From NCBI RefSeq assembly GCF_021117405.1, contig NZ_CP088251.1:806001-870000 (forward strand): DNA of 64,000 nucleotides, given 5' to 3'. Of the stretch, positions 3,879 through 9,649 are shown piece after piece; the first letter of the stretch is position 1; each line of letters opens with the position of its first letter. This stretch comes from Frateuria edaphi (lineage in GTDB: Bacteria; Pseudomonadota; Gammaproteobacteria; Xanthomonadales; Rhodanobacteraceae). The notes beneath the pieces were generated by a model. It did no database searches and was not told the origin of the DNA. It saw only the letters and a program-made list of their open reading frames with translations. The position numbers were made by a program, and so were the translations under genes.

Positions 3879-4009
3879 GGAAGGAAGGGGGAGAAGCAGC
3901 GCGCATCGGGATGCAGCAGGGACCGTTGGCAATAAGCACGTGGTGCCGTGCCTGACACGGCCAATTCACGCATGGGGTCCGAAGTGACCGCATCAGGTTC
4001 GCTCGCCCC
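3879..4009 (+). promoter_or_regulatory. Conserved two-hairpin leader element, copy A (M4 protease)
   Basis: The leader of the M4 protease gene. In order it holds a purine-rich block (from 3879), CGGGATGCAGC, hairpin P1 (GCCGTG at 3945-3950 with CACGGC at 3956-3961), the block CGCATGGGGTCCG at 3969-3981, then hairpin P2. P2 pairs GGGG 3974-3977 with CCCC 4006-4009, CGA 3980-3982 with TCG 4003-4005 and GACC 3986-3989 with GGTT 3996-3999, leaving a loop GCATCA. The start codon lies 27 bases after P2. Copies B and C (6682-6802 and 9529-9649) share the blocks while the stems differ. The 3592-4036 intergenic region otherwise holds only the sufT terminator and an unassigned AT-richer stretch near 3720-3780. 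Confidence 0.6.
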
Positions 4010-4036
4010 GAATTTCTCTTTTATGGAGTACCTGAA

Positions 4037-6181
4037 ATGCCAAGTAATGTCCGTCTGAAGCTCCTGGTTGCCGCCATCGGCATGGCGTGTGCCTCCACCG
4101 CGATGGCAGCAAACAGCGAGCACGTGAACGTGCAAAACCTCGGTGCGGTGCCGGCCGGCAGCCTCGCGACGCGCCTGAACCTCGGCGCGAACATGTCGTT
4201 GACCGCGCGCAGCACCGCCCACCTGCCCAACGGCAAGCAGGTCGTGCGCCAGCAGCAGATGTACCGCGGCGTGCCGGTATACGGCCGCAGCGTTGCGGTG
4301 GAACAGGACGCGCACGGGAACGTGCTGCACGCCTCCGGCAACGTGATGAAGCTGCCGGCGAACCTTGCCGCGCCGCTGTCGGTCACCCCGAAGCTGAGCG
4401 GGGCCCAGGCCATCGCCAAGCTGCAGGCCCACGCGCACACCACGCTGGCCGGCGGCGCGTCCATCTACAACAAGAAGGCCGACCTGTTCGTCTATCCGCA
4501 AGAAAATGGCTCGCCGCGCCTGGTCTACCTCACCTCCTACGTCGTCGGTGGCCAGCATCCGAGCCGTCCGACCGCGATCGTCGATGCGCACACCGGCGCG
4601 GTGATCCAGAGCTGGGATGGCCTGACCGACGCCACGGCCAACGGTCCCGGTGGCAACCAGAAGACCGGCGAGTACTACTACGGCACCGACTACCCGGCGC
4701 TGCAGGTCACCCAGTCCGGCAGCACCTGCACCCTGCAGAACACCAACGTCATCACCTACAACCTCAACCACGGCACCAGCGGCGGCACCCTGGTCAGCTT
4801 CACCTGCCCGACCAGCAACACCGACCCGATCAACGGCGCCTACTCGCCGGTCAACGACGCCCACCACTTCGGCGGCGTGGTCCACGACATGTACGTTGCG
4901 TACAACGGAGCGCCCCCGCTCAACATGCAGCTGCGCATGAACGTGCACTACAAGAGCAACTACGAGAACGCGTTCTGGGACGGCACCGCGATGTACTTCG
5001 GCGATGGCGCCAGCACCTTCTATCCGCTGGTTTCGCTGGACGTGACCAGCCACGAGATCAGCCACGGCTATACCGAGCAGAACTCCGGCCTGCAGTACAG
5101 CGGGCAGTCGGGCGGCATGAACGAAGCCTATTCGGACATCGCCGGCGAAGCGGCCGAATTCTATGATCGCGGCCAGGCCGACTTCCTGGTCGGCGCCGAC
5201 ATCATGAAGAGCGGCACCGCGCTGCGCTTCATGTGCAACCCCCCGCAGGATGGCGGCTCGATCGACAACGCGGCCGACTACACCAGCGGCCTGGACGTGC
5301 ATTATTCGTCCGGCGTCTATAACAAGGCGTTCTGCCTGCTCGCAAAGACGTCCGGCTGGGACGTGAAGAAGGCCTTCCAGTCGTTCGCGCTGGCCAACAA
5401 GTCGTACTGGACCGCGACCTCCAACTTCAACGACGGCGCCTGCGGCGTGGAGTCGGCCGCGACCGCCCTCGGCTATAGCTCGACCGATGTGGCGGCGGCC
5501 TTTACCCAGGTGGGTGTCACCTGCCCGACCGGTGGCGGTGGCGGCGGTGGCAGCACCGTCGAACTGCAGAACGGCGTGGCCGTGACCGGCGTGTCCGGTT
5601 CGGCTGGCCAGGATCACGACTACCTGATCAAGGTGCCCGCGGGCGCTTCCAATCTGGTGATGTCGATCTCCGGCGGCAGCGGCGATGCGGACCTGTACAC
5701 CAAGTTCGGCTCGGCGCCGACGCTCAGCAGCTACGACTGCCGTCCGTACAAGACCGGCAACAGCGAGAGCTGCTCGGTCTCCTCGCCGCAGACGGGCACC
5801 TACTACATCAAGGTGCACGGCTACTCCTCGTACTCCAGCGTGACGGTGAAGGCGTCCTACAGCACCAGCGGTGGCAGCGGCGGCGGCACTACCTCGGTCA
5901 GCCTGCCGACCGTGAGCACCGGCAACTGGTCGGCCACCTACACCGAGACGGTGCAGGCCGGTCACACGGCGAAGTTCGCCATCTCCGGCGGCACCGGTGA
6001 CGCAGACCTGTACGTGCGGGCCGGCGCCGAGCCGACCACCACCAGCTACAGCTGCCGTCCGTACCTCACCGGCAACAACGAGAGCTGCAGCTTCACCCCG
6101 TCGACGACCACCACCTATTACATCAAAGTGCGTGCGTACCAGACGTTCTCGGGCGTGACGCTGACCGAAACGCTCAACTGA
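4037..6181 (+). CDS. Secreted M4 (thermolysin/vibriolysin-like) metalloprotease with two PPC domains
   Basis: 714 residues. A signal peptide ends near AMA at residue 24. A propeptide with FTP/PepSY-type segments (about 40-190) would act as chaperone and inhibitor. The M4 zinc peptidase domain spans about 205-495, with HEISH giving ligands H339 and H343 and catalytic E340, and third ligand E363 in [10 protein letters not shown] Gly-rich linker then leads to two pre-peptidase C-terminal (PPC) domains at about 505-605 and 617-714, each with GDADLY and YYIKV signatures. PPC domains are usually removed after export. Secretion is probably by the type II system. ATG 4037 follows GGAG by 8 bases. First of three secreted protease genes with a common leader type. 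Confidence 0.93.
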
Positions 6182-6234
6182 GGTCGGTCCTGGGGTCCGC
6201 GTCTGGCAATCGACGCGGGCTTCCCGGGTCCAGT

Positions 6235-6263
6235 AAAACCCCGGCTTCGGCCGGGGTTTTTTT
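6235..6263 (+). terminator. Intrinsic terminator after the M4 protease gene
   Basis: CCCCGGC-TTCG-GCCGGGG stem with the stable TTCG tetraloop, flanked by AAAA and a run of seven T. Confidence 0.92.
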
Positions 6264-6471
6264 ATGCCCGCAGCCTGAAAACGCGGGATCGCCAGGTACC
6301 ACGCCTGCTCGCTGCTGGTACCGGCGTTTTCTGGCGTCATCGCCGTGAAGGTGGTTCGCCCAACGCGGCTTGCGCTGCCAGGGCCGATTCGGATGCGCAC
6401 CGACCCTGCATTGCCCCCAAGCGAACTCGACGGCCGGTGATACGACCGGAGCGGTGCATTTGCAAACCGCC

Positions 6472-6493
6472 TCATTTATTTGCGAATAAATGA
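6472..6493. repeat. AT-rich perfect inverted repeat upstream of the first sedolisin gene
   Basis: TCATTTATT at 6472-6480 and AATAAATGA at 6485-6493 form a perfect 9-bp inverted repeat around TGCG. It lies in an AT-rich island (about 6465-6595) inside otherwise very GC-rich DNA, upstream of the leader. It could be an operator. The rest of the 6182-6825 intergenic region holds the M4 gene terminator, this island, a TTGACC at 6561-6566 and the leader element. Confidence 0.35.
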
Positions 6494-9186: not shown

Positions 9187-9242
9187 CGTCAGACGCCGGG
9201 GCACGTTCATCCGCTGCCTCGGCATTTTTCGATGGTAATGAC

Positions 9243-9271
9243 ACGCCCGGCCAAACGCCGGGCGTTTTTTT
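9243..9271 (+). terminator. Intrinsic terminator after sedolisin copy 1
   Basis: A 9-bp stem, ACGCCCGGC with GCCGGGCGT, around CAAAC, followed by a run of seven T. Confidence 0.92.
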
Positions 9272-9305
9272 GTCGAAAAAATCCGATGCCGTGGCCGCAG
9301 AGTTA

Positions 9306-9325
9306 ATGCGCAAGAAATTACGCAT
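9306..9325. promoter_or_regulatory. Inverted repeat ATGCG-N10-CGCAT upstream of sedolisin copy 2
   Basis: ATGCG at 9306-9310 and CGCAT at 9321-9325 are separated by 10 bases. A related TAATGCGCA/AATGCG stretch lies at about 6510-6529 before sedolisin copy 1, and both regions also carry CCTATTGAC further down (TTGAC at 6561 and 9390). These may be remnants of a shared promoter or operator that was duplicated with the gene. The remaining 9187-9677 intergenic DNA holds the copy 1 terminator and leader element C. Confidence 0.35.
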
Positions 9326-9528
9326 ATGCACGCGGTATTTACATCGATAAATGCCATGGATTACCTAATCACATTTTGAAAAATTCCTATTGACGGTCCC
9401 TTTCCCGGAGCCCATGGTCGGTCCGCTCCGTCGCAGGGAAGTCGACGAGGCGTCCTGTCGTGGCCCCGCCACCGAAGGTGATGACGGCGCCAGCTGCCGG
9501 ACCGATACGCAACGCGCCTCCGCAGGGA

Positions 9529-9649
9529 ATTCCAGGGGAGAAGGCGCCCGGCCCGACGGCACGCGGGATCGCTGGCCATCAAGAACCGGAACGGTCGCAC
9601 CAGCGACTCACACGCATGAGGTCCGCACGGGCCGCATCGGGGCCGTGCG
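9529..9649 (+). promoter_or_regulatory. Conserved two-hairpin leader element, copy C (second sedolisin)
   Basis: A purine-rich block (CCAGGGGAGAAGG) is followed by CGGGATCGCTG at 9564-9574, hairpin P1 (GTCGC 9594-9598 with GCGAC 9603-9607) and the block CGCATGAGGTCCG at 9613-9625. Hairpin P2 pairs CGCACGG 9624-9630 with CCGTGCG 9643-9649 around a loop holding CCGCATCGG. P2 here has a different stem sequence from copies A and B, yet seven perfect pairs. The start codon is 28 bases downstream. Confidence 0.6.

What the first reader, a model, noticed from the sequence alone, without database searches (positions are those of the whole stretch)
3879..9649. Three secreted-protease genes share a covarying two-hairpin leader RNA of no recognised class
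Seen directly: the leaders of the M4 gene (3879-4009) and the two S53 genes (6682-6802, 9529-9649) have the same order of elements: purine-rich block, GGGAT-block, hairpin P1, CGCATGRGGTCCG (12 of 13 bases the same in all), hairpin P2 with CCGCATC in the loop, then the ribosome binding site 10-20 bases on. P1 stems are GCCGTG/CACGGC, GCCGCAC/GTGCGGC and GTCGC/GCGAC. P2 stems also differ (GACC/GGTT with GGGG/CCCC; GCGAC/GTCGC; CGCACGG/CCGTGCG) yet keep pairing. Sequence changes that preserve pairing are the mark of selected RNA structure. The M4 gene is unrelated to the S53 genes, so common descent of coding regions does not explain it. Inference: a cis-regulatory RNA (riboswitch, protein-binding or translational control) for a secreted-protease regulon.
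Basis: partly seen in the sequence, partly recalled or inferred. Interest (0 to 1): 0.8.

Follow-up and report, generated by a model that had tools for sequence, protein, structure and literature searches.

The report
Switch-like leader RNA of secreted proteases
Bacteria of one family carry the same previously unlisted folded RNA just in front of three unrelated kinds of exported protein, mostly proteases; evolution has kept two mutually exclusive folds plus a likely docking hairpin for the regulator RsmA/CsrA, so it probably works as a switch on protein production.

Summary
The finding holds and is wider than reported. A covariance model from ten leaders matches 87 of 233 genomes of the family, in 15 of 26 genera; the family is Rhodanobacteraceae. 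Nothing convincing lies outside it, and Rfam has no match. Of 182 places examined, 173 precede an S53, an M4 or a third exported protein.

Two corrections. A:B and B:C each covary, also with the rival partner held fixed, and against gene trees for S53 and T3 but not M4 leaders. The 'purine-rich block' belongs to a further hairpin with GGA in its loop before AGGGG (74 of 102; shuffles 6.3), shaped like an RsmA/CsrA site.

The Shine-Dalgarno is complementary to an upstream box in M4 leaders (0 of 300 simulations), though not in this window, and more weakly to D in S53 leaders (7 of 200). Best reading: an RsmA/CsrA-bound bistable leader controlling translation; regulator, direction and switching are inferred.

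The parts
3866..3900 (+). P0 of the M4 leader: outer CTGC/GCAG, ATGGAAGGA then AGGGGGA
   Evidence: sequence; meets the loop-GGA criterion only with a weak 3-bp stem
3919..3932 (+). box GGGACCGTTGGCAA, M4 leader
   Evidence: alignment A1; R1 alignment
3902..4018 (+). covariance-model match, M4 leader (R1, 120.9 bits; one of the sequences R1 was built from)
3945..3961 (+). P1 GCCGTG/CACGGC
3972..3980 (+). segment A ATGGGGTCC
3985..3993 (+). segment B TGACCGCAT (pairs with A or with C)
3994..4009 (+). segments C and D CAGGTTCGCTCGCCCC
4025..4028 (+). Shine-Dalgarno GGAG
4037..6181 (+). M4 metalloprotease with FTP propeptide and PPC domains
6677..6706 (+). P0 of the first S53 leader: GACGCT/AGCGTC with AGGGA and AGGGGAGG in the loop
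   Evidence: sequence; fails the strict inner-stem criterion
6720..6733 (+). box GGGATCGCTGCAAG
6706..6811 (+). covariance-model match, first S53 leader (89.3 bits; part of R1)
6743..6758 (+). P1 GCCGCA/TGCGGC
6767..6775 (+). segment A ATGGGGTCC
6778..6786 (+). segment B CGACCGCAT
6787..6803 (+). segments C and D CGGTGTCGCTCGGCCCG
6815..6819 (+). Shine-Dalgarno AGGAG
6826..9186 (+). S53 peptidase (Pro-kuma_activ, PKD); sedolisin-like
9514..9547 (+). P0 of the second S53 leader: GCGCCT/AGGCGC with CAGGGAA and CCAGGGGAG
   Evidence: sequence; fails the strict criterion
9565..9578 (+). box GGGATCGCTGGCCA
9552..9662 (+). covariance-model match, second S53 leader (54.6 bits; part of R1)
9594..9607 (+). 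P1 GTCGC/GCGAC
9616..9624 (+). segment A ATGAGGTCC
9629..9637 (+). segment B GGGCCGCAT
9638..9654 (+). segments C and D CGGGGCCGTGCGTCTTT
9667..9670 (+). Shine-Dalgarno GGAG
9678..12008 (+). S53 peptidase, second copy

Best explanation
The element is a cis-acting leader RNA, found in Rhodanobacteraceae, that controls translation of exported proteases. From 5' to 3': P0, a hairpin with ANGGA in its loop next to AGGGGGA, shaped to bind the RsmA/CsrA dimer; a box (GGGAUCGCUNGGCA); P1; then four segments A-B-C-D just before the Shine-Dalgarno (SD). B can pair with A (a small hairpin, complete first during transcription) or with C, the latter inside an A:D stem (a long, usually more stable hairpin). 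Shown by comparison: the hairpins P0, P1 and A:B, the two exclusive pairings of B, the genes served. Inferred: when A:D forms, D is unavailable and the SD is open; when A:B forms, D (or, in many M4 leaders, the box) can mask the SD; RsmA bound at P0 and other GGA motifs biases the choice or the RNA's stability. In the same order, loss of rsmA lowers extracellular enzymes in Xanthomonas, which suggests that RsmA activates here.
For: Recurrence: 87 of 233 genomes at E 0.01 per genome, where two or three would match by chance. 173 of 182 places precede three protein families. P1+A:B on 82 leaders: 95.7% of 1049 cells paired, covariation 0.300 vs 0.178 shuffled, 0 of 500; A:D+B:C 0.266 vs 0.217, 0 of 500. 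Partner exchange among 59 representatives: A:B z -5.6, B:C -4.5, A:D -4.3; controls A:C 0.1, B:D 0.0. B (with the A-B spacer):C with A fixed z -4.5, n 48; A:B with C fixed z -3.8, n 47. Protein-tree null: S53 A:B 1 of 300, B:C 6, spacer+B:C 0; T3 A:B 2, B:C 13, spacer+B:C 5 of 300. G-U 61 vs A-C 4 at A6:B2 and A7:B1: RNA rather than a DNA dyad. P0: 74 of 102 vs 6.3, max 13, in shuffles; outer stem z -11.4, inner stem z 7.6, ANGGA 72 of 95. CsrA consensus RUACARGGAUGU in hairpin loops, and bridging of two sites (PMC7652899, passages); CsrA in the own genome and 39 of 41 genomes. Box:SD in M4 leaders 0 of 300, 0 of 200; D:SD in S53 leaders 7 of 200. Xanthomonas rsmA (PMC7694677, PMC3937308, passages).
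Against: No experiment. RsmA is inferred from motif shape: 64 of 171 leaders have no AGGGG in the window examined, and 28 of 102 distinct segments that have it, both S53 leaders of this window among them, fail the strict criterion; a control pairing also gave z -2.7, so that test has background. On the protein tree M4 leaders alone support neither A:B (43 of 300) nor B:C (168 of 300). With fixed register, A:D is within the tree null (71, 142, 121 of 300), and so is B:C in S53 and T3 (21 and 138 of 300). In one search the A:D+B:C structure slid by -1 pairs more cells (88.4%) than in place (84.2%), though with less covariation (0.197). A4 was fitted to R1, whose structure has A:D and B:C, so counts there lean to them. 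No A:B pair passed the all-pairs tree simulation (best E 0.35). A:D+B:C is on average 7.3-8.5 kcal/mol better than A:B counted alone, so A:B must be transient or stabilised. Box:SD is absent from the window's leaders (-0.3, -2.6, -2.1 kcal/mol) and from S53 and T3 as groups; D:SD fails in plain permutation (z +2.4) and in M4 and T3.
Confidence: 0.6

Rival explanations
1. A metabolite riboswitch: the A/B/C/D region is an aptamer or expression platform that senses a small molecule.
For: Two conserved exclusive pairings next to the SD are what translational riboswitches have; conserved stretches such as CGTTYG in C.
Against: The genes served are not metabolic enzymes or transporters but three unrelated families of exported proteins; a protein site (P0) would explain the upstream part; no Rfam riboswitch matches.
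Confidence: 0.15
2. A passive stabiliser: hairpins that protect or expose these mRNAs, without switching.
For: A hairpin close to the SD; the long hairpin is the more stable fold in 151 of 171 leaders.
Against: A passive hairpin needs only one fold; A:B and B:C are both conserved with the rival partner held fixed, and the box follows the SD in M4 leaders.
Confidence: 0.12
3. A DNA-level operator: the inverted repeat ATGGGGTC-GACCGCAT is a transcription factor site.
For: Dyad symmetry and strong conservation of ATGRGG and CCGCAT.
Against: Pairing is kept while the sequence changes completely (e.g. CTGCAGTC-GACTGCAG in L244); G-U 61 vs A-C 4 at A6:B2+A7:B1, which a double-stranded site would not show; narrow distance to the start codon, 9-21 nt in 136 of 136.
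Confidence: 0.03
4. A target of a base-pairing small RNA acting on the box or the SD, with the hairpins presenting it.
For: The box is kept in leaders where it does not pair with the SD.
Against: Such an RNA was not searched for; in M4 leaders box changes follow SD changes within the same leader, unlike pairing to one shared partner in trans.
Confidence: 0.1

Closest known systems
CsrA/RsmA-controlled leaders (E. coli glgC; Xanthomonas hrpG and hrpD 5' UTRs)
   Same: GGA in a hairpin loop upstream of the SD, with a second GGA near by; CsrA present; extracellular enzymes are RsmA-dependent in the same order (PMC7652899, PMC3937308, PMC7694677, passages seen).
   Different: Here the site heads a conserved structure of about 150 nt with P1 and a bistable region, shared by three unrelated gene families; binding is untested.
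Translational riboswitches (general knowledge)
   Same: Two exclusive pairings next to the SD.
   Different: No ligand known, no metabolic gene context, no Rfam match.
Rfam release 15 families
   Same: None at gathering score in the element.
   Different: The only weak matches, mir-4865 (E 2.9) and Scr1601 (E 0.94, other strand), lie far below their gathering scores (none).

Membership tests
CsrA/RsmA target leader | GGA in the loop of a short hairpin, preferably ANGGA | tested here: met
   74 of 102 vs 6.3 in shuffles; ANGGA 72 of 95. For the family as a whole; weak in the window's M4 leader and not met by the strict criterion in its two S53 leaders
CsrA/RsmA target leader | second GGA within about 10-63 nt | tested here: met
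   GGA to AGGGG 7-9 nt in 75 of 95, the GGA of AGGGGGA a few nt further; range from PMC7652899. Not every block ends in GGA
CsrA/RsmA target leader | CsrA encoded in the genome | tested here: met
   (39 of 41 genomes)
CsrA/RsmA target leader | direct binding of the protein | not testable with these tools
   needs gel shift or CLIP
known Rfam family | match at or above gathering score | tested here: not met
   one search lists five tRNAs only
riboswitch | conserved alternative pairings | tested here: met
   (not for M4 leaders alone on the tree)
riboswitch | binds a small molecule | not testable with these tools
   needs in-line probing
DNA operator (inverted repeat) | both strands equivalent, so G-T and A-C mismatches equally common | tested here: not met
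   G-U 61 vs A-C 4
RNA thermometer | SD paired in a labile helix in all members | tested here: inconclusive
   box:SD at -6 kcal/mol or lower in 27 of 42 M4, 11 of 62 S53, 2 of 16 T3 leaders; other SD pairings not excluded

The most novel reading that the evidence does not exclude
A new, family-wide regulatory RNA class in which an RsmA/CsrA docking hairpin is wired to a conserved kinetic switch: the nascent A:B hairpin traps the leader in an SD-masked state, and RsmA or another signal lets it refold into A:D/B:C, so that unrelated exported proteases answer to one post-transcriptional signal by carrying the same leader.
Probability: 0.4. Interest if true: 0.8.

Novelty: new variant of a known kind. 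Interest (0 to 1): 0.68.

Why it matters
It offers a compact, testable RNA switch with two evolutionarily documented pairings, shared by non-homologous genes, which is strong evidence for a real regulon acting after transcription. It would explain how Dyella, Rhodanobacter, Frateuria and relatives coordinate exported proteases, and gives a natural system to ask how an RNA-binding protein can act on a bistable leader.

Tried and rejected
C:D hairpin (P3): plausible by eye, not supported by permutation (z +2.2; z +1.9); tree tests mixed (S53 107, M4 4, T3 17 of 300; 45, 10, 44 of 300). D:SD masking in all leaders: not supported by permutation; only S53 on the tree. D:SD in predicted folds of the tail: at least three pairs in 75 of 135 leaders, but over 43 representatives the mean energy equals that with D letters shuffled. 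Box:SD over 46 mixed representatives: p 0.05-0.08; it is a feature of M4 leaders. Single-sequence folding z-scores: uninformative. Sigma-70 scan: no match on the sense strand upstream of the three genes. Third family (T3): no PDB relative (L120 matches PDB only in its PKD part), AlphaFold2 model too poor to search with (mean pLDDT 42.8). Gapless RNAalifold of P0 gave no structure, probably because arm positions shift; the inner-stem test was spoiled by infinite energies and redone. P1 arms were chosen to pair, so its statistics there are not independent. Literature: the listings show no paper on this leader; nothing beyond listings was read for that question. Passages were read of PMC7652899, PMC3937308, PMC4066749 (nothing used) and PMC7694677. 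Weinberg et al. 2017 (recalled) is not held.
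Full report
Observation. Rfam release 15 matches nothing in the window at gathering score but five tRNAs; permissive scans of the three leaders give two weak matches and none. 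The window's genus is Frateuria: four of its five genus mates have contigs of exactly the length of records named Frateuria terrea, F. flava, Frateuria sp. STR12 and a Frateuria MAG. Frateuria and Fulvimonas are Rhodanobacteraceae. A strict pattern scan of 84,980 species finds 22 stretches, 19 of them under the names Rhodanobacter (8), Frateuria (6), Dyella (4) and Fulvimonas (1), the other three MAGs with vague names.

Recurrence. All six genomes of the genus have the M4 gene with the leader; two others besides the own genome have the first S53 gene with it. R1 finds only the three leaders in the own genome; its paralogous M4 genes and third S53 gene show no such leader by eye. R1, built from ten leaders, finds 87 of 233 genomes of the family at E 0.01, in 15 of 26 genera; the table has 142 places by my count. 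R2, built from 82 of these, finds 68 of 398 genomes of the order at E 0.001: 67 in the same family, and G495 (E 9.2e-5), which is not before such a gene. Class: 2 of 369 genomes, the own genome and a partial match in G811 (E 6e-4, not examined). Phylum: 2 of 299, the own genome and F. terrea. These are samples, scored with the stricter filters.

Genes served. Of the 142 places, 134 outside the window with a start codon placed cluster into 63 S53, 44 M4, 25 of a third family (T3) and 2 unplaced, L135 and L179 (families named from representatives). Four more are S53 genes of the genus (two of them in the window). L167 ends at a contig end; L192, L196 and L197 do not look like leaders. Forty further R2 places: 25 S53, 8 T3, 4 M4, 3 without such a gene (L213, L222, L223). 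Total 173 of 182. T3 has no Pfam catalytic domain and is called 'serine protease', 'hypothetical' or by its PKD domain in sources; that it is a protease is not shown.

Structure. P1 and a helix between ATGRGGTC (A) and GACCGCAT (B) form in 95.7% of 1049 cells on 82 leaders, seven of 13 pairs with changes on both sides. Because A:B excludes both A:D and B:C, I exchanged partners between 59 leaders at most 80% alike in the core: A:B z -5.6, B:C z -4.5, A:D z -4.3, C:D +1.9, while A:C and B:D, which nobody proposes, give 0.1 and 0.0. Within groups of the same A, B (with its spacer) and C stay at z -4.5; within groups of the same C, A and B stay at -3.8. Against leaders evolved on protein trees, S53 leaders (89) give A:B 1 and spacer+B:C 0 of 300, T3 leaders (33) 2 and 5 of 300; M4 leaders (46), with few changes, 43 and 44 of 300. 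A:D is 10, 153 and 14 of 300 for S53, M4 and T3 with free register and 71, 142 and 121 of 300 with fixed register; fixed-register B:C is 21, 88 and 138 of 300. An earlier all-pairs simulation on a tree of the leaders themselves left no A:B pair significant (best E 0.35). Some leaders changed A and B wholesale and still pair, e.g. CTGCAGTC with GACTGCAG in L244. G-U outnumbers A-C 61 to 4 at A6:B2 and A7:B1, which speaks for RNA. The long A:D/B:C hairpin is 7.3-8.5 kcal/mol better than A:B counted alone, on average; A:B wins in 1 of 48 M4, 14 of 90 S53 and 5 of 33 T3 leaders. A:B is complete before C and D are transcribed, so it may be a kinetic trap (inference).

P0. The purine-rich block lies mostly 77-90 nt before A (5th-95th percentile of 101 leaders); AGGGG is found in 19 of 171 leaders further upstream and 4 of 171 downstream of that window, in 107 of 171 within it. 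Of 102 distinct segments with AGGGG there, 74 have a hairpin with GGA in its loop abutting it, against 6.3 (max 13) when the preceding 26 nt are shuffled. Exchanging arms between 60 leaders spoils the outer stem (z -11.4; a control pairing gave -2.7) and the inner stem (z 7.6); 72 of 95 read ANGGA. A few loops, such as that of L180 (ACGT-ACAAGGA-ACGT), come close to the CsrA SELEX consensus RUACARGGAUGU; most do not have ACARGGA (4 of 95). CsrA prefers GGA in hairpin loops and bridges two sites 10-63 nt apart (PMC7652899, passages). CsrA is encoded in the own genome and in 39 of 41 genomes searched. In Xanthomonas, RsmA binds GGA in the hrpG leader and stabilises it (PMC3937308, passages), and rsmA deletion lowers extracellular enzymes (PMC7694677, passages; amylase and cellulase are the ones named there). 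The window's M4 P0 is weak, and its two S53 P0 hairpins have GGA in larger loops and fail the strict criterion.

Shine-Dalgarno. In M4 leaders the box (e.g. CUAGACA) is complementary to the SD region (UGUCUAGGAG) and follows it when it changes: mean -7.25 kcal/mol against -4.66 on the tree for 42 leaders, 0 of 300; 0 of 200 in a repeat in which no other tested segment did so. At -6 kcal/mol or lower: 27 of 42 M4, 11 of 62 S53, 2 of 16 T3 leaders. It is absent from all six Frateuria M4 leaders (0 to -0.9 kcal/mol) and weak in the window's S53 leaders (-2.6, -2.1). In S53 leaders (65) D is complementary to the SD beyond the tree null (7 of 200), though not in the plain permutation over all families.

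Reading. The simplest account is translational control with an RsmA/CsrA entry point. Which fold is ON, whether RsmA binds, and whether it activates, is inference. The paper listings searched show no description of this leader; most subscription journals are not held.

Noticed in passing
window 3775-3817: Far upstream in the M4 leader a hairpin ATCCGT..ACGGAT with GGGGAGG in its loop is identical in six Frateuria orthologs and largely kept in ten Rhodanobacter-type leaders; it may lie near the transcript 5' end.
   Followed up: partly
window 3807-3839: A short open frame with a good SD (GGGGAGG 3793-3799; ATG to TGA, 10 codons) sits in that M4 leader; by eye its length differs between species, so a conserved leader peptide is unlikely.
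   Followed up: no
L038, L039, L045, L046 about 1400-1500: Paralogous M4 genes share, by eye, a different conserved leader (GGGGAGG.TCGGCGA.TGCCGA.. then CCATCCATTTCCT.GGGAGGGAAACACC), possibly a second leader type.
   Followed up: no
L090 422-1555 and relatives: Exported protein family (T3) with NPxxPxYxHxYRHG and GHExAET invariant in 29 aligned members, no Pfam or PDB relative of its core, sometimes followed by PKD domains; called serine protease by some sources.
   Followed up: partly
L222, L223 about 300-450: Leaders of genus g18 that match the model but have no protease frame after them; perhaps decayed copies.
   Followed up: no
genus Frateuria: S53 orthologs with the leader were found in three of six genomes (G000, G005, G074), although the M4 leader is in all six.
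   Followed up: no
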